Below are positions 53,928 to 64,000 of a stretch of 64,000 nucleotides of DNA, one piece after another; within the stretch, counting starts at the first letter, position 1; every line of letters starts with the position of its first letter. A program made the position numbers and the translations under genes. Under the pieces are notes generated by a model. That model searched no databases. It saw only the letters and a list, made by a program, of their open reading frames with translations, and was not told the origin of the DNA. Source of the DNA: Candidatus Obscuribacterales bacterium (GTDB lineage Bacteria > Cyanobacteriota > Vampirovibrionia > Obscuribacterales > Obscuribacteraceae); assembly GCA_019637435.1 (NCBI GenBank), contig JAHBVO010000003.1, positions 1,178,001 through 1,242,000 of the forward strand, in the 5' to 3' direction.

Positions 53928-55223
53928 CTATTTTTTTCTGCTCTTGCTGGTTGTCTTCGCAGAGGCTATCGGTTTGCCTTCTAGTGCTTTCCTTAGCTCA
54001 GTGTGCTCGAATGCCGATGCCATGCGATCAATCTGACTCGCCGGCATACCGAAGTCCGCAGCTACGCTGCGCCACGAGCTCACGGCTGTTCCCACCTCAT
54101 GAGCGATTTTATAGGCGTTCTCCTGACTGATTTCGAAGTAGGTGGCTACTTGAAGTGCGAGTTCTAGCGACGCTGTGGCGTCGTCGAGATCGATGGCTGT
54201 GCTGAGCACACGCGGTTTTATATCAATCGGTACCGGATTGATGTCGTATGCAGGCGAAAGGCGCCAGCCGGCTGGAGCGTTAAACAAGAAACCGTGATTT
54301 CTCAGGTGGTCGTCTGTGTTGGAAATTAAAATGTTTAGCACGATGCGACGCCACAGCATGCGCATATCCTCTATCGGTGAGCCGCCAACCTGGCGAAGAA
54401 CATCTACAAATTCCATATAACTCCGCTGTTCGTTGTCTCTTGCATTAAGCATACTCATTGAAGAAACAAATGGAATGCGGGTTCCTTCAAAGCGATCGAA
54501 GCGTCGCAGCAGAAGAACCGGCCTCTGGGCGACGTTTTCCAAACGCCATTCCGGAACGTTGACGCCTGCATTGCTAGCGAGTGTCAGGGCGACGGCTTCC
54601 CATAACACGGTATTGATCTCATCGCCTTCATGCGGAAATTTTGCTATCGCTAAATGACCATCCTTATCGCGTACGGAAGCCTTGGGGCGCGCGCCTCCGA
54701 GAGAGGAGCCTGGCGCGAGCAGCAGGCGTAAGTCTTCATCTGATTCTTTATCGCCTAGTACGTTTTCTGCTGCAGAGAGGAGGCGCGGTAATTCGATCAA
54801 CGGCGGTATCTTCCTCTTTCCATCTTTTGCTAGAAACGCTCCACCAGCGCTTGTCTTAAAGCGGAGTGCACCTTGACGTGCTTCGTCATCGACCATCAAT
54901 AAGTAATCAATCTCGCGGAGGGTTCGAGCTGTTTTCCCTTCCTGCTCAGCGCGTCGACGCTCGGCTCTGCGCATTAACACGCGTCCCCATCTATCCGGAG
55001 CCGAGTCACCGATGGCTCCAAAAAGAGCGCGATCACTATGGAACGGACCAGGACCGAGTGTCAGCGCGGGCTCCAATGAAAAGCGTAAAGGATTGGAAAG
55101 CCAGTCTTTGTCATATTCGAACGTTGCACTGTCTTTTTCTTTGTGCGTCCGCGTCCACAAACGCCCGACAAGAAATGGCTTGCCGGAAAGATCAACATAG
55201 ACTAGCGTTTCGGTTTCCATCAC
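53928..55223 (-). CDS. hipA: HipA-like serine/threonine kinase toxin
   Basis: The protein has 431 residues, typical for HipA. An N-terminal couple_hipA region (VYVDLSGKPFLVGRLWTR) is followed by the phosphatidylinositol-kinase-like fold. It has GGARPKASV (about 176-184), AIAKFP with the ATP-binding Lys, LLLRRFDR, the catalytic ISNTDDHLRNHG (Asp at about 304-305) and the metal-binding SPAYDINP (324-331). All key residues are present. HipA kinases phosphorylate targets such as glutamyl-tRNA synthetase and slow growth. The cognate HipB-like gene overlaps its start by 4 bp. The tail is Lys/Ser-rich. Confidence 0.9.
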   Translation of the reverse strand: MMETETLVYVDLSGKPFLVGRLWTRTHKEKDSATFEYDKDWLSNPLRFSLEPALTLGPGPFHSDRALFGAIGDSAPDRWGRVLMRRAERRRAEQEGKTARTLREIDYLLMVDDEARQGALRFKTSAGGAFLAKDGKRKIPPLIELPRLLSAAENVLGDKESDEDLRLLLAPGSSLGGARPKASVRDKDGHLAIAKFPHEGDEINTVLWEAVALTLASNAGVNVPEWRLENVAQRPVLLLRRFDRFEGTRIPFVSSMSMLNARDNEQRSYMEFVDVLRQVGGSPIEDMRMLWRRIVLNILISNTDDHLRNHGFLFNAPAGWRLSPAYDINPVPIDIKPRVLSTAIDLDDATASLELALQVATYFEISQENAYKIAHEVGTAVSSWRSVAADFGMPASQIDRMASAFEHTELRKALEGKPIASAKTTSKSRKK

Positions 55224-55573
55224 GACGCGTCCGGTGGGGCGGTTTTCTTTCGTGGGAGCCGGATGCGTTTTGGGAGGCGCTCTTCCTCTAGCTGGCGCCC
55301 AAGGTTGTCTTCACTGGCATCAGCCAAATTGCCGACTCGATCAATCATGCCGAGCACAAACAAAATTGTCGCGTATGTGCCCATTGATACGCTCGCGTCG
55401 CCGTTCTCTACATTGTACAAAGTCATGCGGCTGATGGATGCTCTTTCCGCCAGGAGCTCTGTCGGTATGCGTCGCCGCAGTCGAGCGTCCCGGATGTCTT
55501 GTCCGAGTTTGCGCAGCGCCCGACGAACGGGGATGGGAGTGGCGTTCGAAGCAGATTTAGGCATAATGTCCAT
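55220..55573 (-). CDS. hipB: HipB-like antitoxin, XRE-type HTH regulator
   Basis: The protein has 117 residues from the ATG at 55573; an ATG at 55564 (MPKSASNATP) also fits. A helix-turn-helix of the XRE/Cro type is clear (residues about 22-75: LGQDIRDARLRRRIPTELLA, then ERASISRMTLYNVENGD). The C-terminal tail is basic and Pro-rich. It overlaps hipA by 4 bp in the order antitoxin then toxin, as usual for hipBA. HipB binds its own promoter and neutralises HipA. Repeats upstream at 55581-55686 are candidate operators. Confidence 0.85.
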   Translation of the reverse strand: MDIMPKSASNATPIPVRRALRKLGQDIRDARLRRRIPTELLAERASISRMTLYNVENGDASVSMGTYATILFVLGMIDRVGNLADASEDNLGRQLEEERLPKRIRLPRKKTAPPDAS

Positions 55574-55742: not shown

Positions 55743-58700
55743 CTACTGATTCGCCACAATCAATACGTTGCCACCGAATGTGATGGCACCCTTCTTGAGC
55801 CCATTGTTTATCGAAACCGTTTTCGTCGCACCATTGATTGTGTTGGTCGGTCCTTTTGCCTTGATAGCGGCTCCAGTGAGAGACGTAGAGCCCGTCACCA
55901 TAACATTCGCGATTGGCTGTGGCATAGCTGAGACGCTATTCGGACCAAGCGAAATGACGATGTTATCAGCGCTGGCTCCAGCAGTTCTGACAGTTGCATT
56001 TGTTTCAAACCCAATCTTGCCCTTGGCGCCGGTGTTGAGTAGCGACAGGCTCTGATAGGCAGTTATGGTGCCGTTTACGGTCAAAGTTCCATTGTCGGTT
56101 TGAACGGAAATGTCTTTCGCGAAAAACTGGTTGAAGCCACTTCCATCTAACACCACTGATCCCCTAGCGACTACATCAAGAGTTTGTGCCAAATCGACGT
56201 TCGCCACGGTCAATGGCTTGGTGCTGTTGCTCTGAATGAAGGCAGAACCGGCACCGCCAGCAGCTTGCACTGAGAGAGCCGTGACTCCCGCGGGAACCAC
56301 AAAGCGATCAACGGAGGTTCCGATGCTGCCCTGCGCGATGAGGCTCAATGAGGGTGTCGTGACTGTGCCCTGAAACGATGAATTCGGTATTCCTGAAGCG
56401 TATGAAGTCGCCTGCAGAAATTGGGAAGCTGTAACATCGCCAAAAGTGAATTGGGCGGCGTTGATAATGGCACCCTTGCTAACAATGGCAGTGTTTGATG
56501 TGTCAATAGTTTTGAACTCCGCATTTACCAGCAAGGCGCCTCCACTGTACCAGCCGAATGTCGAACCTAAACTACCGTTGCCGAAAACAGTCACGATGGC
56601 AAGACCTCCAGCATTGAGGTCCAGCATGGATGTGATGAGTCTTAGCGGGGCAGTGGCGGTGCCTATGCTGTTTCCTGCGCGCAGAACGGTCGAGCCTGTT
56701 GAGTTTATTTCATAGTTATCGAGAACTTTTATGTCATGACCAGCTTGGAAAAATGCGTCCGCAGAGGTGTTCACTGTATTGTTGAGAAGAACATCGTTGC
56801 CGGCCATGGCGCTGAGCGTGCCGCGGAGATCAACCGTCCCGTTAATTTGAAGGCTAGCTTTTTTGTTTACCTTATCTGCCTTGAGAAACGCCGTGCTTGT
56901 TCTTACGCCATTTTGATCGTAAACGATGAGTGCTTTCTTCTCGCTCCCTATGATCGATCTTGTCATCAGCGTGATATCTGCATTGTTTCCGGTGCCTTCA
57001 TCAGCCCAGATTTTCCCAACCTTCAGTGGAATACCATCAGGAGCCTTTGTGCCCGCCGCGATAAGCGAGATGTTTCCATTCTTGCCAGTACCCCAACCGT
57101 TGGTGTTGATGGTGGCGCCCGTAGTGTCAATCATCCCGGCAGCGATACCATCGGCTCCCTTTCCGTCAAAAGCAAACATCTGTATATCGCCACTGTCTCC
57201 GTTGAAAGGAGCGCCCGTGGCTACGGTCCAAACGTTAGAGCCGGAGCCAAGAATTATGCTACCTCCGGTTTTCGAAGATTTTCCTGTTAGCGAAACCGTT
57301 CCAGACGCTCCGGCGGTATTGCCACCATTTAGTTCTGATCTGTTTGCACCACCGGTATTGGTGAAATCTGCTCCAGCAATGAATGTGATGTCAAAACCGT
57401 CAGTCGCGTTGCCGGCTCGCACAAAGACCCCGTCTGCGGTTCGCACATTGCCACTCGCGACAACTACAAGGTTCTCAGCGACGGTTAGATCGCCGTCAAT
57501 GACGATACTACCAGCGGTGTTGAAAAATGTTGGATCGCCAGTCAAACAAACTTCGCCGAGCTGCATTAAGTCGGTGGATGCAACGACATGCGCAGCATTG
57601 CCGGTTTGAGAAATTTTACCGGTAAGCTCACCAACATTCGTGTAGGCGGTGCCTTGCCCGGCATGCATGTTGTATGTTTTGCTGAATAAATCGCCTCCCG
57701 TTATGTAGGAATTCTGCGAGCCGTTGTAAGAGGAATCTCTGAGGTTAATCGCACCGCTGAGGGCGCTGATGGTGCCGCGACGGTTGTTAACCTGGAGGAC
57801 CGCATCTGGCGCTCCATTGAGATTCACGTTACCGCTCGCGGAGGATATCGTGCCACGATTATTGACGTTGGCTGCGCCGAGGTCTACATTGGTGGCGGCG
57901 CTTATGGTTCCTGAGTTGCTGATGGCACCACCTGCGGTGAGCGTCAAAGCGCCGGATGAGTTTATCGTGCCGGAGTTGTTTATAGTTCCAGACGCATCAA
58001 GTGTGAGATCAACATTGGATGTAATGGTTGCGTTTTTGAAGTTGTTTATGTCGTCAGCGCGAATTGCACCACTTCTCGCATTGCTGTTTCCTGAAACCGC
58101 CGAAACCGTTCCATAGTTGCTCAGATCACCAAGCAATCTGAAATCTGAACCTTTAGAAAAGTCACCGATGGTGGTGACATTGCCGGCGTTGACATAATTC
58201 GCCGCACGCAGCTTGTCGCTGTTCGAAGTGATGGAATCAAGCTCAACAGAACCACCGCTCGCGCGGCCGGATTGATCGACAGTCAATGTTTGGGTGCCGC
58301 CTGAGACAATTTGTTTGACGGCTAAGTATTCTGCTGCTGTTACGCGGGAACCGGCTGCAACAGTTTTGGTGCCATTTCCCGTTTTGATTTGAACCGAACT
58401 GCCATCGACGAAAAGATTTTTTCCGAGGACAATGTTTTGAGCATTGGAAGTGAGGTCGAGATCGAGGCCGTTTTTTAAACGGATGGAGTTGCCGAGTTCG
58501 TTGGTTTGTCTGGTGTGTGAACTCAGGCGACGGTCGATCTGAGTTGTGAAATCAATGGTCGGAGTGAACGATTCTATGGTTTGAATCCTGGCGTGCTCCT
58601 GCCTGCCACCAGCATTAGCGCTGTCCGAGAATCGACTCTCCCGAAATAGCTGCCGCGCCGCATGCCTGTCCAAACCAAGATTTTGTTCTCTAAACTCCTT

Positions 58701-58828: not shown

Positions 58829-59455
58829 TTGCCATTGGTCGGTCGGTCCGTCCTTACTTACGCGAATGTAAGAGAGTACTACAAATGCGGGTGTTGCCGC
58901 ACTAGCAAAGGTTTAACGAACAGACGACCTGGCGGCGGCTGTAGCCGATTGGTCACCTTTGCGATTTGTCTCATTGCACTCCCGCCGCGTCGCCCGCATG
59001 CGAGTACTGCACCTTCGACTCTCTTGTGAAAACCTTCACAAATTTCCTATTTCATCAATGCGAAGGGCGAAAAGGTTTCGCTTCCATCTGAAGCCGAAAT
59101 CTTTAAGAACGTCAAACGAAATGGCATTGTTCGCGCGGCGGCTTGGGGAGTGCCAATAGGCGTCTGCACTTTCGGACTTTTAGCGGGTCCAACCATTGTC
59201 GCATCAGGCGCTCATACAAAGGTCACAAACGGAACTGTCAAAGCGAACATACAAAAGAATTGTTTTCACGGCGGGCACCTGAGTCCGGAAGGGGCAGTTT
59301 CGACGATGGTATTCATTCCGAAGAAACAAAAGGAAATCCAACAAGTTGCTTTTGGACGCGTAATAAATTTGGAAGACGAAGTTGAGACAACCAAAATCAT
59401 TGGCATTGAGAACAATGAAGGTTCGGAGAAAAAACACCTTGCGAAGAAACAATAG
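58829..59455 (+). pseudogene. Exported protein gene interrupted by an in-frame TGA
   Basis: One frame holds a hydrophobic signal-like stretch (SRLVTFAICLIAL), then a TGA at 59027-59029. It then continues for 142 codons that look fully coding (ISYFINAKGEKVSLPSEAEI; GIVRAAAWGVPIGVCTFGLL; and on to a LAKKQ-stop). No ATG, GTG or TTG follows the TGA until a GTG at 59150, in the middle of a hydrophobic segment. Most likely a nonsense mutation killed a secreted protein gene. A base-call error is also possible. Its end overlaps the start of the next gene. Confidence 0.5.
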
Positions 59456-60254: not shown

Positions 60255-60397
60255 GAATCTGAGACAGAAGATAATTGGTAAGCGGCTTCTATGGTCGAGT
60301 CCACATAGAGAGTGTTCAATATAAGATCGAGGATTCACTTCTTCGTCACGGCGCTTATAATTGCTGATATTGCGTTTCCGGCGAATTCGCGATGCTA

Positions 60398-60449
60398 TGC
60401 GCAAGGGACTTGAACCCACACGTATTGCTACACTAGATCCTAAGTCTAG
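60398..60449 (-). pseudogene. tRNA-Leu(UAG) 3' fragment
   Basis: On the minus strand, CTAGA-CTTAGGA-TCTAG forms an intact anticodon arm with anticodon TAG (60440-60442). It is followed by a variable-arm-like stretch, a GTGGGTTCAAGTCCC T-arm and TTGCGCA of the acceptor 3' strand. The 5' acceptor and the D-arm are missing. It resembles the 3' part left when an element integrates into a tRNA gene, or a decayed tRNA. The 60255-60610 gap holds no other gene that I can see. Confidence 0.55.
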
Positions 60450-60610
60450 GGACTGAAGGTGTCTAAAAAAGGCTTAATCCTGTTCTCAGCAAACGAGTTC
60501 TTGGATCCTCGCTTCTTCGATAGCCATAGTTTGGAATTTCGGAATATACCTTTTGTGCAGCACTATTGGAACGAGCGTGCCCTTTTGAGCACGAGGGCGA
60601 GGTAGGCAGA

Positions 60611-61060
60611 ATGCGTCGAATACAACCGCAATCGATTATTTGCGAGAGCCCGGATCATTACTCCGTTCTCTTCAAGAAGACCGATACTCTAGTCGACTAT
60701 ACATTCTCCATCGAGCGGACCGGAGAAGTTGGCGTGTTGAATTGCGACCAGCGCGAGTTCTTTTTTGAGACTCATGATGACCCAGCAACAAGTTCTCTAT
60801 TGAAAGCAATCGATTTGTTTGGTGAATTTCGACAACGTGATTCCGGGACATCAGTGCTAAAGTCAATCTCAGCGGTTTCAGGAAGTCAAAACTCATACGG
60901 CGTTGTCGTTCAGACCAAAGGCGGGGATGTCGAATTCATTTTCGCAGTTGAAGACCAAGACTTGCCAACTCTTGTGAGCGCAAATTACGCTTCCGAAATT
61001 AGCAGCAGCGATTGCATAAAAGAAATGATCGCGCTTTTTCACCAAGCCAGGAACTCTTAG
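60611..61060 (+). CDS. Hypothetical soluble protein
   Basis: The protein has 149 residues from the ATG at 60611 (MRRIQPQSIICESPDHYSVL), with GAGGTAGG just upstream; a longer frame from 60566 is less likely. It has no signal peptide. It is alpha/beta and acidic (EFFFETHDDPATSSLLKAID; VEFIFAVEDQDLPTLVSANY). The size and style recall the hypothetical protein at 46790, but I cannot show homology. It is flanked by two tRNA 3' fragments, so it may be cargo left by an old integration event. Confidence 0.5.
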   Translation: MRRIQPQSIICESPDHYSVLFKKTDTLVDYTFSIERTGEVGVLNCDQREFFFETHDDPATSSLLKAIDLFGEFRQRDSGTSVLKSISAVSGSQNSYGVVVQTKGGDVEFIFAVEDQDLPTLVSANYASEISSSDCIKEMIALFHQARNS

Positions 61061-61129
61061 AACGAGGCAAGGCCTAAGTACACGATTCAAGATTTAAAGA
61101 CGGTAGAGCTTATACTCGGGTCGAAAACC

Positions 61130-61165
61130 GGGCAGGGTAGGACTTGAACCCACAAGTGTGGGCAC
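61130..61165 (-). pseudogene. tRNA-like 3' fragment (T-arm and acceptor)
   Basis: On the minus strand GTGGG-TTCAAGT-CCTAC is a well-paired T-arm. It is followed by CCTGCCC, which could be the 3' acceptor strand. Upstream only an inverted repeat (CCCACA-CT-TGTGGG) is seen. The tRNA identity is unclear. Confidence 0.4.
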
Positions 61166-61332
61166 CATATATAGTGACATCGAAAAGTTCCATTTTTAGT
61201 CTTGAAGTCGCCGGGTAAGACGAACGGTAAGCATTGAGCATCGCGAATCGCGCGGGTTAGGCGCGAGAACGGCGGAGGTTGTCGCCGGTTCGAGATTTCG
61301 CTATCGACAAGCGCTACCGTCTACGCGACCTC

Positions 61333-61368
61333 AATAAAAAACCGGCACCTCTTTCGAAACTGCCGGCC
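61333..61368 (-). terminator. Intrinsic terminator downstream of the tRNA-fMet fragment
   Basis: On the minus strand GCCGGCA, a 13-nt loop and TGCCGG are followed by TTTTTTATT. This is a textbook rho-independent terminator. It lies 16 bp past the CCA end of the tRNA fragment at 61384-61428, so it is probably the native terminator of that tRNA gene. Confidence 0.8.
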
Positions 61369-61383
61369 CTTCAAGCTTGTAAT

Positions 61384-61428
61384 TGGTTGCGGGGGTAAGA
61401 TTTGAACTTACGACCTTTGGGTTATGAG
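61384..61428 (-). pseudogene. Initiator tRNA-Met(CAU) 3' fragment, probable island attachment site
   Basis: The minus strand has the anticodon loop CTCATAA (anticodon at 61424-61426), then CCC, a variable loop, the T-arm GTAAG-TTCAAAT-CTTAC and CCCCGCA-ACCA. The 3' end matches initiator tRNA-Met from memory. The expected GGG on the 5' side of the anticodon stem is missing and no D-arm or acceptor 5' strand follows. The tRNA is cut at the anticodon loop, a usual tyrosine-recombinase crossover point. The integrase gene lies on the cut side. Confidence 0.75.
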
Positions 61429-61558: not shown

Positions 61559-61593
61559 GGGTACGGCCTAGGGTACAACATGGGGTACGGCCT
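61559..61593 (+). repeat. Direct repeats upstream of the integrase (candidate arm sites)
   Basis: GGGTACGGCCT occurs at 61559-61569 and 61583-61593, with GGGTACAA at 61571-61578 between them. The three GGGTAC units are spaced 12 bp apart. They lie between the tRNA fragment and the integrase start, where arm-type integrase binding sites are expected. Confidence 0.55.
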
Positions 61594-61617
61594 GAAGACG
61601 GTGTGAGGTGCGCTCTT

Positions 61618-62895
61618 ATGACCAAAGACGGCAAAGGCGAGAAAAAGTTCTCCGCAAAGCACATCCGTGCTCTTCAATGTCCTCCGGGCATGCGGCAGCA
61701 GTACGTGCTCGTCTCTCCCGACATTCATCTCTATGTCTCAGTTGGCAATGGCGGAACCAAGGCGTTTTGCTTTAGAGCAAAGGTAAACCAAGCATGGCGA
61801 ACGCTCTTCCTAGACTGCAAGTTCGACGACTCGCTGCCTGATGCTCTAGTGAAAACGGCGATGTTAGAGGCGAAGTCACGCGCAGCCGAGCTAACAGCGC
61901 GCAGGAATCGTGGGGAAAACGTCTTCGATGCCGCTAAAGTGACCTCGACTGAACCAACCCTACAAGATTTATTTACTTACTATCAAACAGAACATCTAGA
62001 AAAAACCGGACGGCGAGTAAAAGATAACCTCGATAACTTCAACCGATGGTTCGTAAAGCGGAACTTGCAAAAGAGAAAAGCCAACGACTATTCTCACGAC
62101 GATGCTTCGCGTCTGCATAAACAAATGGAAAAAACACCGGGGAGTGCTAATCGCGCAGTACAACTTGGTCGAGCCATGTTCAACTTTGGAATAAAGACAA
62201 GGTTCCTTAAACGTACAGACAATCCATTCGCCGCTGTCTCGCTCTATCCAGAAAGAGAACGCGACCGTGTTTTGTCCGACGAAGAAGCTGGAAAGCTTAT
62301 TTCAGCAATTAGCGAAGCGCCCTACAGCCACTGTCAGGAGCGGTCACTTGCTGACATGATAATGCTTTGGCTACTCACTGGAGTCAGAAAAACAGTGGTT
62401 CTAAAAATGAGATGGTCAGAGATTGATGAACAAATCTGGCTTTGGACGATACCGGCTGCAAACATGAAGGGACGAAAATCTCAAGAAATCCTTCTCGGAC
62501 CAGCTGAGATCGAGATTTTAACTGCTCGAAAAGCGATGCTTTTGGAAGAATCTGAGAATTTTTCTGACTTTGTTTTTCCGAGCGAAAAAAGCGCGAGCGG
62601 GCATATCGAAGATCCAGGAAATGCGTGGGAGAGTCTTCGAGAACGACTTGATCTGGGTGATCTCTGGATCCATGATCTGAGGCGAAGTTTGGCCTCGGCA
62701 ATGGCAAATACCGGAGCAAATGTTGCGGTCGTGAAACAGGCTTTGGCACACACCGATGAGCGAACGACAATGAAAGCGTACATTAGAACTACTCGACAGG
62801 TACAGTTAGATGCCCGAAAAAAAGCGCAAGAGGCTTGGTTTAATGCCGCCAACAGTGCAAGCGCACCTGCCCAGAAATCCGAGGAGGAAGAATAG
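61618..62895 (+). CDS. int: Tyrosine recombinase / phage-type integrase
   Basis: The protein has 425 residues from the ATG at 61618, with GAGG 9 nt upstream; a GTG at 61603 is an alternative. The N-terminus looks like a DUF4102-type arm-binding domain (HLYVSVGNGGTKAFCFRAKV). A SAM-like core-binding domain follows (LQDLFTYYQTEHLEKTGRRV). The catalytic domain has all expected residues: Arg257 in LLTGVRK, Lys284 in MKGRKSQ, His352 and Arg355 in IHDLRR, His378 in ALAHTD and the nucleophile Tyr388 in KAYIR. It integrates mobile DNA, usually at tRNA genes. The cut tRNA-Met lies 190 bp upstream, and the gene appears intact. Confidence 0.93.
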   Translation: MTKDGKGEKKFSAKHIRALQCPPGMRQQYVLVSPDIHLYVSVGNGGTKAFCFRAKVNQAWRTLFLDCKFDDSLPDALVKTAMLEAKSRAAELTARRNRGENVFDAAKVTSTEPTLQDLFTYYQTEHLEKTGRRVKDNLDNFNRWFVKRNLQKRKANDYSHDDASRLHKQMEKTPGSANRAVQLGRAMFNFGIKTRFLKRTDNPFAAVSLYPERERDRVLSDEEAGKLISAISEAPYSHCQERSLADMIMLWLLTGVRKTVVLKMRWSEIDEQIWLWTIPAANMKGRKSQEILLGPAEIEILTARKAMLLEESENFSDFVFPSEKSASGHIEDPGNAWESLRERLDLGDLWIHDLRRSLASAMANTGANVAVVKQALAHTDERTTMKAYIRTTRQVQLDARKKAQEAWFNAANSASAPAQKSEEEE

Positions 62896-63024
62896 CGAAA
62901 TTGGAGATGCTGTAATAAAAGGCACCAAATACGATACCGATAATTTACGTGCCTTCTACGTGTGATCGATTAAAGTCACACCAACCATCCCGAAATGGCT
63001 TTATGCGATGTAGGAGAAAGAATT

Positions 63025-64000
63025 TTGGCTGACAAGACTCTTTACTTGAAAACGGTACTTCCGTTGAAAGGCGGCATTAAGCTCGCAGGTTGGCCAAATT
63101 TCAAAGAGCATGATTTTCCAACGTTTTCAAAAGATGGTATTGCAGTCAAATTTTCTTTTGATAACACCTCAGCATACAGTCCTCCGTCATTCTCGAACGA
63201 GGAGCTAGCAAGAATATCAAATCCGCCTATCAATCAGGTCTTTGTTAACTTAGAAACGAAAGGCATTTCAGCCGAACTCGCAGAATACATTATGACGACC
63301 AAGAAAAACTGGGAGCCGCCGGAATTAGCTAAAGAGTATAGAGATCTAGCTGACACCATATTTGATACCACAATGTACTACCTAAATCGACTAGTCGTCT
63401 TCTTTAGAACTGAGAAAGGTCAGTATTGGTTGGAAGAGTTTGTCGACTCTGCTCAAAAGGAACTTAATTCGCTTGGTGAAACAACGCACCCTAAAAGAGT
63501 CTTAGCCGAAGCTCGGTTTGACGACTCTGACTGGTTCCGTTGGGATCCCATGAGCCATCCCGGTGTACTAATTTTTTCGTTCGGTGACCCGCGCGCGGTT
63601 ACCGTTGAAGATTGGTCACGCGCCTGGGACTTTGTCGGTTCCGGGCGTAATACAGATCTCCCGCTTGAACTTCTTGTTCAAGCCGAAACGTTGGGAGAAA
63701 ACAAGCATGACCGAAGTGCATTAACTGAGGCTATTACCGCACTAGAAGTAGCCCTCTCAAGATTTGCTGAGAATCCTGCGTCTGACCTATTTCTGAATGA
63801 CCAATTGCGTGCCCGTTTCGGAACAACCAGACTCAAAAATCTTCGAGAACATCTCGGTCTTACTGGAACAGTTCACTACCTTCTTCCTATTATATTTAGC
63901 GAAGCAGAACTTGACTCAAAGACTCTTAGCGATTGCAGGCAAGCAATAGAACAGAGAAATAATGTCGTGCACAAAGGACAACGCAAAGTAAAAGACTTAA
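63025..64000 (+). CDS. HEPN-like protein, truncated by the right edge
   Basis: The frame starts at a TTG at 63025 with AGGAG 9 nt upstream, or at an ATG at 62995, and stays open to the window end (325 codons). It has no signal peptide. The first 150 residues are alpha/beta. The C-terminal visible part is helical (RSALTEAITALEVALSRFAE) and reaches AIEQRNNVVHKGQRKV. The Arg-Asn-x3-His motif is the signature of HEPN ribonucleases, and the segment before it resembles Apea-like HEPN domains. It is the first gene after the integrase and is likely island cargo with a defence or toxin role, by inference. The stop lies beyond the window. Confidence 0.6.
   Translation, partial: MADKTLYLKTVLPLKGGIKLAGWPNFKEHDFPTFSKDGIAVKFSFDNTSAYSPPSFSNEELARISNPPINQVFVNLETKGISAELAEYIMTTKKNWEPPELAKEYRDLADTIFDTTMYYLNRLVVFFRTEKGQYWLEEFVDSAQKELNSLGETTHPKRVLAEARFDDSDWFRWDPMSHPGVLIFSFGDPRAVTVEDWSRAWDFVGSGRNTDLPLELLVQAETLGENKHDRSALTEAITALEVALSRFAENPASDLFLNDQLRARFGTTRLKNLREHLGLTGTVHYLLPIIFSEAELDSKTLSDCRQAIEQRNNVVHKGQRKVKDL

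What the first reader, a model, noticed from the sequence alone, without database searches (positions are those of the whole stretch)
60398..61428. Three different tRNA 3' fragments in the same orientation within 1 kb
A tRNA-Leu(UAG) fragment, an unidentified T-arm/acceptor fragment and a tRNA-fMet fragment lie in tandem, all on the minus strand. The Leu and fMet pieces are both cut in the anticodon arm. This may record successive integrations by elements with different tRNA targets, or a decayed tRNA cluster.
Basis: partly seen in the sequence, partly recalled or inferred. Interest (0 to 1): 0.55.

Follow-up and report, generated by a model that had tools for sequence, protein, structure and literature searches.

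The report
Island-end scars: fMet and leucine tRNA pieces
Three broken tRNA ends lie beside an integrase gene because mobile DNA islands repeatedly inserted into tRNA genes; the start-codon tRNA piece marks one end of a large island and the two leucine pieces are older leftovers, a known kind of scar that is well preserved here.

Summary
The fMet piece (61381-61428, -) is an exact copy of the 3' half of the genome's initiator tRNA gene, which lies on another contig. The Leu piece (60405-60449) is exact Leu(UAG) anticodon stem to T arm. The "unidentified" middle piece (61130-61157) is a Leu T arm plus acceptor, best fitted by Leu(UAG). The fMet piece is the displaced 3' end (attR) of an island whose tyrosine integrase sits next to it (61603-62895). 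The five closest integrase homologues examined have an fMet piece at the same place and orientation; in one, G011, only about 20 bp remain. A paired 10-bp word (GGCCGTACCC) occurs at two places in 7.66 Mb: beside the intact fMet gene on contig C2 and beside this piece on C3. I infer that C3 tail and C2 head form one island of at least 118.8 kb with coupling-protein, relaxase and efflux genes. Beyond the piece lies the decayed end of an older fMet island (like G011, G018), so islands were stacked here. The Leu pieces are relics of Leu(UAG)-targeted elements, common in this family (Obscuribacterales); how they came to lie in an fMet scar is unresolved. Known mechanism; modest interest.

The parts
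61381..61428 (-). displaced 3' half of initiator tRNA (anticodon loop to CCA plus 3 bp): attR core of island A
   Evidence: 48 of 48 bp identical to the intact gene on C2
61411..61439 (-). inverted repeat CGACCTTT / AAAGGTCG round the anticodon-loop sequence: probable integrase core sites and crossover region
   Evidence: sequence read directly; crossover position inferred
61559..61592 (-). repeats GGCCGTACCC (arm-type sites by analogy)
   Evidence: the paired word occurs at two places in the genome, here and beside the intact fMet gene
61603..62895 (+). tyrosine integrase of island A (start codon uncertain)
   Evidence: PF00589, E 1.2e-21; homologues carry fMet pieces
62896..64000 (.). interior of island A, running on to the contig end (C3:1247582) and, by inference, to C2:1-110603
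   Evidence: gene content shared with islands of G023 and G011; arm words; no contig overlap
61162..61380 (-). decayed tRNA-side end of an older fMet island (B): terminator, eroded arm repeats
   Evidence: aligned with the stretch after the intact fMet gene in G011 and G018
61130..61157 (-). Leu T arm plus acceptor piece (best Leu(UAG))
   Evidence: 23 of 25 and 25 of 28 to own Leu(UAG)
60405..60449 (-). Leu(UAG) piece, anticodon stem to T arm, acceptor end missing
   Evidence: 45 of 45 to G011 and G012 alleles, 43 of 45 to own gene
60566..61060 (+). 164-aa ORF between the two Leu pieces, no Pfam family; cargo or chance ORF

Best explanation
The fMet piece is the distal attachment-site scar (attR) of a large integrative island (A) that its own tyrosine integrase inserted into the anticodon-loop part of the genome's single initiator tRNA gene. 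The island brought a replacement 3' half, so the tRNA stayed whole on C2, and pushed the old 3' half to the far end, beside the integrase gene in this window. The sequence beyond the piece is the decayed tRNA-side end of an older island (B) at the same gene, so the locus records at least two stacked fMet insertions. The two Leu pieces are worn attachment-site remnants of elements that target Leu(UAG), left within or beside island B. Shown: identities, order, orientation, homologue pattern, matching arm repeats, homology of the B end. Inferred: crossover position, C3-C2 contiguity, history of B. Weakest step: how the Leu pieces came here.
For: Exact 48-bp copy of the fMet 3' half beside a tyrosine integrase. 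Five integrase homologues, from four unnamed relatives and one further named contig, all have an fMet piece 155-233 bp upstream of the integrase on the opposite strand, one of them decayed. The paired word GGCCGTACCC occurs at two places in 7.66 Mb, one at each proposed end; in G023, G007 and G011 the word also agrees at both ends. G023 shows intact gene, island, integrase, piece, and a second piece on one contig. The stretch beyond the piece aligns with the fMet-side island end of G011 and G018. C2:28-34 kb genes recur in the islands of G023 and G011. Displaced Leu(UAG) pieces: 13 of 26 sites in 40 genomes, own included; 7 of the 11 in relatives have an integrase-like ORF within 500 bp.
Against: Intact gene and piece are on different contigs and the contig ends do not overlap. 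G011, whose integrase is a homologue, has only about 20 bp of the piece. No integrase of island B or of a Leu element was found between 60450 and 61380. No arm repeats were found round the window's Leu piece, and its acceptor end is missing. Genes left of the pieces show no synteny with fMet neighbourhoods of relatives.
Confidence: 0.83

Rival explanations
1. Decayed tRNA cluster: an fMet gene and Leu genes once stood here in a row and lost their 5' halves.
For: Three pieces in one orientation within 1 kb.
Against: The fMet half is 100% identical to the living gene, not worn; only 3' parts are present; pieces begin at the anticodon or T arm; the same fMet piece stands beside the same integrase in five other genomes.
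Confidence: 0.03
2. The window's integrase site is an attP carried on a free or elsewhere-inserted element, and the C2 fMet gene belongs to another island.
For: The intact gene lies on a different contig and nothing bridges the contigs.
Against: The paired arm word occurs at just these two places, one per end; the sequence beyond the piece is like the fMet-side island end of relatives; G023 shows the full arrangement on one contig.
Confidence: 0.08
3. For the Leu pieces: the two pieces are the two ends of one small unit of about 0.7 kb. They share the direct repeat TGTGGGTTCAAGTCC, and their outer parts would form one Leu site if the unit were a circle, so a small circle with a Leu site may have inserted through the T-arm repeat into island B.
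For: 15-bp direct repeat and complementary outer parts, read from the sequence.
Against: No recombinase inside; the middle piece differs from Leu(UAG) at 3 of 28 positions while the other is exact, so they need not be of one age; T-arm words are shared by many Leu tRNAs; no uninterrupted version found in relatives.
Confidence: 0.1

Closest known systems
tRNA-targeted genomic islands as defined by Islander (PMC4383910; passages read)
   Same: Intact tRNA gene, displaced 3' piece in the same orientation, tyrosine integrase inside, anticodon-centred attachment site.
   Different: Gene and piece are on two contigs; the integrase is at the far end, next to the displaced piece; the target is the initiator tRNA.
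Tandem arrays (accretion) of integrative elements at one tRNA gene (PMC4383910 passages; search listing only)
   Same: Second island end beyond the first piece; G023 has two fMet pieces in a row.
   Different: Island B has lost its integrase and most of its body; Leu-type pieces lie at an fMet locus.
Integrative and mobilizable or conjugative elements (PMC5704250, search listing only)
   Same: Integrase plus MobA/VirD2-type relaxase, ribbon-helix-helix protein and coupling protein in the inferred island.
   Different: Two coupling-protein modules, so probably a composite; mating-pore genes were not searched for.
tRNA gene fragments misread as genes (PMC9897764; passages read)
   Same: Partial tRNA genes left by integration of mobile elements.
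   Different: Here ARAGORN and Rfam miss the pieces altogether.

Membership tests
tRNA-targeted genomic island | intact tRNA gene plus displaced 3' piece of the same gene, same orientation | tested here: met
   fMet gene C2:110604-110680 (-) and piece C3:1239381-1239428 (-), identical over 48 bp
tRNA-targeted genomic island | tyrosine integrase inside the island | tested here: met
   61603-62895, PF00589
tRNA-targeted genomic island | gene and piece on one replicon, island between them, 2-200 kb | tested here: inconclusive
   two contigs; inferred size at least 118.8 kb plus an unknown gap; arm words and shared genes support it
tRNA-targeted genomic island | circular form or excision | not testable with these tools
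   needs reads or PCR
Tandem island array | each member has its own tRNA piece and its own integrase | tested here: not met
   island B: end sequence present but no integrase or second fMet piece found near it; it is a relic of stacking, not a full array
Integrative and mobilizable element | relaxase and coupling protein | tested here: met
   PF03432 and PF02534 in C2:30-34 kb, if C2 head belongs to the island
Integrative and conjugative element | own mating-pore (type IV secretion) genes | not tested
   not all island genes were scanned (20 proteins, and the integrase and next ORF)
Decayed tRNA cluster | worn genes in place, with 5' parts or synteny in relatives | tested here: not met
   fMet half unworn; no tRNA found in the window

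The most novel reading that the evidence does not exclude
In this family one integrase group keeps a fixed core (the initiator tRNA anticodon arm) but changes its arm-site word from element to element, with the same word at both ends of each. The words would act as barcodes that keep stacked islands from being excised by each other's integrase, and so allow stacking at an essential single-copy tRNA gene.
Probability: 0.25. Interest if true: 0.5.

Novelty: new member of a known kind. Interest (0 to 1): 0.32.

Why it matters
It gives exact island ends in an uncultured lineage related to cyanobacteria for which two paper searches listed no island study. It shows the single initiator tRNA gene as a recurrent insertion site there: 9 of 19 intact fMet genes of the family with enough downstream sequence carry a paired arm word within 250 bp. 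The arm words let separate contigs be paired as ends of one island. If the barcode reading held, the question of how stacked islands avoid cross-excision would become testable.

Tried and rejected
Covariance and ARAGORN searches of the window gave no tRNA hit and cannot judge half tRNAs; the three weak Rfam hits at E<=10 (S4-Bacteroidia leader, TUG1_2, IRES_Cx43) are far under their cut-offs and were dropped. Integrase in viral contigs: no hit. In plasmids and phages all matching records (164 and 74) are under 60% identity and the rows shown are 23.6-29.0%, so neither ties it to a known plasmid or phage. Synteny of the window's left-hand genes with fMet neighbourhoods of relatives, to prove C3-C2 adjacency: no convincing match; the 290-aa ORF at 59382 has no match in the two same-genus genomes. 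Contig-end overlap: none for C3 end and C2 start. I first read 61380-61162 as ancestral host flank (note); some searches showed arm repeats like the island ends of G011 and G018, so I now read it as an older island end. Arm repeats round the window's Leu piece: none found. The palindrome CACYNTATAYGGTGC first looked island-specific; it is genome-wide, so it was dropped as island evidence. The second half printed nothing because of a pattern slip; redid it. In one search, two family loci cut off by contig ends and one at a contig edge (which had a pair) were left out of the 9 of 19; 8 loci from outside the family had 0 pairs. The arm pattern was defined on some of the same loci, so its control (16 of 20000 random pieces) is optimistic. 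Paper search gave nothing on fMet genes as targets.

Full report
WHAT IS THERE. The window is G000:C3:1178001-1242000 of a 7.66-Mb, six-contig genome. Three tRNA pieces lie on the minus strand. Piece 1, 61381-61428, is identical over 48 bases to the initiator tRNA locus on contig C2 (110604-110680), from the anticodon loop to CCA plus three bases. At up to 3 mismatches the genome holds this 3' half at these two places only. Piece 2, 61130-61157, is a Leu T arm plus acceptor: 23 of 25 with own Leu(UAG), 25 of 28 with Leu(UAG), and 20 of 21 with Leu(CAG) over a shorter stretch. Piece 3, 60405-60449, is Leu(UAG) from anticodon stem to T arm, 45 of 45 with the alleles of G011 and G012 and 43 of 45 with the own intact gene; its acceptor end is missing. 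None of 100 shuffles matched any of the three patterns. ARAGORN and Rfam score none of the pieces, which shows only that these programs do not see half tRNAs.

ISLAND A. Directly beyond piece 1 lies a divergent tyrosine integrase, 61603-62895 (PF00589). In 40 genomes searched, own included, its closest homologues are in G023 (73%), G007 (70%), G017 (65%) and G011 (63%). Of three loci from named genomes, L182 (71%) is new; L180 and L181 equal the G023 and G007 contigs in length. All five homologues have an fMet 3' piece 155-233 bp upstream of the integrase, on the opposite strand: 45, 45 and 47 bases in G023, G007 and G017, the 18-base core in L182, and only about 20 bases in G011. G023 carries the whole arrangement on one contig: intact fMet 57837-57913, integrase 82419-83666, piece ending at 83943, then 5 kb and a second piece ending at 89030.

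ATT-SITE ANATOMY. On the minus strand the window reads CGACCTTT-AGACTCATAACCC-AAAGGTCG at 61439-61411, an inverted repeat round the anticodon loop CTCATAA; I infer that the crossover lies there. Next to the integrase gene lie GGCCGTACCC repeats (61592-61559). A paired GGCCGTACCC occurs at two places in the genome, here and 71-92 bp downstream of the intact fMet gene (C2:110512-110533). In the other three elements with both ends read, the word also agrees at both ends: G023 and G007 GCCTTACCC, G011 GCCTAACGC. "Arm-type" is a name recalled from known integrases; no binding was tested.

EXTENT. If the C3 tail (8.15 kb beyond the piece) leads to the C2 head (110.6 kb before the gene), the island is at least 118.8 kb. 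Orientation fits and the arm words match. Islands of G023 and G011 share a block with C2:28-34 kb, and the last ORF of C3 matches inside G011's island. The contig ends do not overlap, so contiguity is inferred. Twenty proteins were scanned from C3 tail and C2 head: among them two conjugative coupling proteins, a MobA/VirD2-type relaxase, ribbon-helix-helix proteins, SSB, an RND efflux pump, a cation-efflux protein and three consecutive tyrosine recombinases. Two coupling-protein modules suggest a composite.

ISLAND B. Just beyond piece 1, 61380-61162 aligns with what follows the intact fMet gene in G011 (90% over 68 bp, then 73%) and G018. There it is a terminator followed by arm-word pairs, that is, the tRNA-side end of an island. 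In the window the first arm pair is deleted and the second eroded. So an older fMet island preceded A; the two pieces of G023 show stacking too. I first took this stretch for host flank and changed that. Of 19 intact fMet genes of the family with 250 bp readable downstream, 9 have a paired arm word there; 8 loci from outside the family have none.

LEU PIECES. In the same 40 genomes, 26 sites matched the Leu(UAG) pattern, 13 intact and 13 displaced. Eleven displaced sites are in relatives; 7 of these have an integrase-like ORF running away from them within 500 bp. A tree of 13 integrases puts the 6 fMet-linked ones on one side of a branch (support 100/99) and the 7 Leu-linked on the other; the program flagged long branches. 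The Leu-linked ORFs were judged integrases by similarity, not by a Pfam scan. G023 and G004 show the same arm word beside the intact Leu gene and beside the displaced piece. So Leu(UAG) is a second standing target in this family. Piece 3 is nearer to alleles of other genera than to its own, so it most likely came with such an element. How Leu relics came to lie beside an fMet island end is unresolved: nested insertion, a secondary site, or the 0.7-kb unit among the rivals. Apart from the Leu and fMet-flank matches described above, 60300-61378 has no match in the relatives searched.

NAMES AND NOVELTY. Relatives carrying the integrase are titled Candidatus Obscuribacterales bacterium (two) and Cyanobacteria bacterium (one). 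The mechanism, an intact tRNA gene plus displaced piece round an island, with anticodon-centred sites as one class, is described in Islander (PMC4383910, passages read). Integration as a common source of tRNA fragments is described in PMC9897764 (passages read). Tandem accretion is in print (search listing). Searches for Obscuribacterales with integrase and Obscuribacter with mobile-element terms listed no paper on these islands by title or abstract start; that is a limited search. Verdict: a new member of a known kind, with a well-preserved history.

Noticed in passing
window 61162-61176 (-); whole genome: Palindrome-like word CACYNTATAYGGTGC: 39 strand matches in G000 and 63 in G002, with 0 for the reversed pattern in both; absent from 8 of 9 genomes outside the family (G027 has 2). 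Possibly a binding site of a family-specific regulator.
   Followed up: partly
G000:C2:823600-823793 (L028, L112): Own Leu(UAG) gene has a displaced, native-type Leu 3' half only about 0.1 kb downstream: looks like an island collapsed to a scar.
   Followed up: partly
G000:C1:1666461-1669934 and C5:63948-64833 (L002, L020): Dense tRNA arrays: 21 ARAGORN genes within 3.5 kb on C1, with some odd anticodons or loops, and 5 on C5; possibly carried by a phage or other mobile element.
   Followed up: no
G000:C2:40408-43950 (L047): Three consecutive, overlapping tyrosine recombinase genes in the inferred island, like a recombinase trio (name recalled).
   Followed up: no
window 53928-55573 (-): HipA-like protein with an upstream helix-turn-helix gene, a hipBA-type pair, about 6 kb from the tRNA pieces.
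   Followed up: no
G023:C46 (L117, L127): Apparently complete 37-kb Leu(UAG)-targeted element: intact Leu, matching arm words TAGCCCAGA at both ends, integrase beside the displaced piece.
   Followed up: partly
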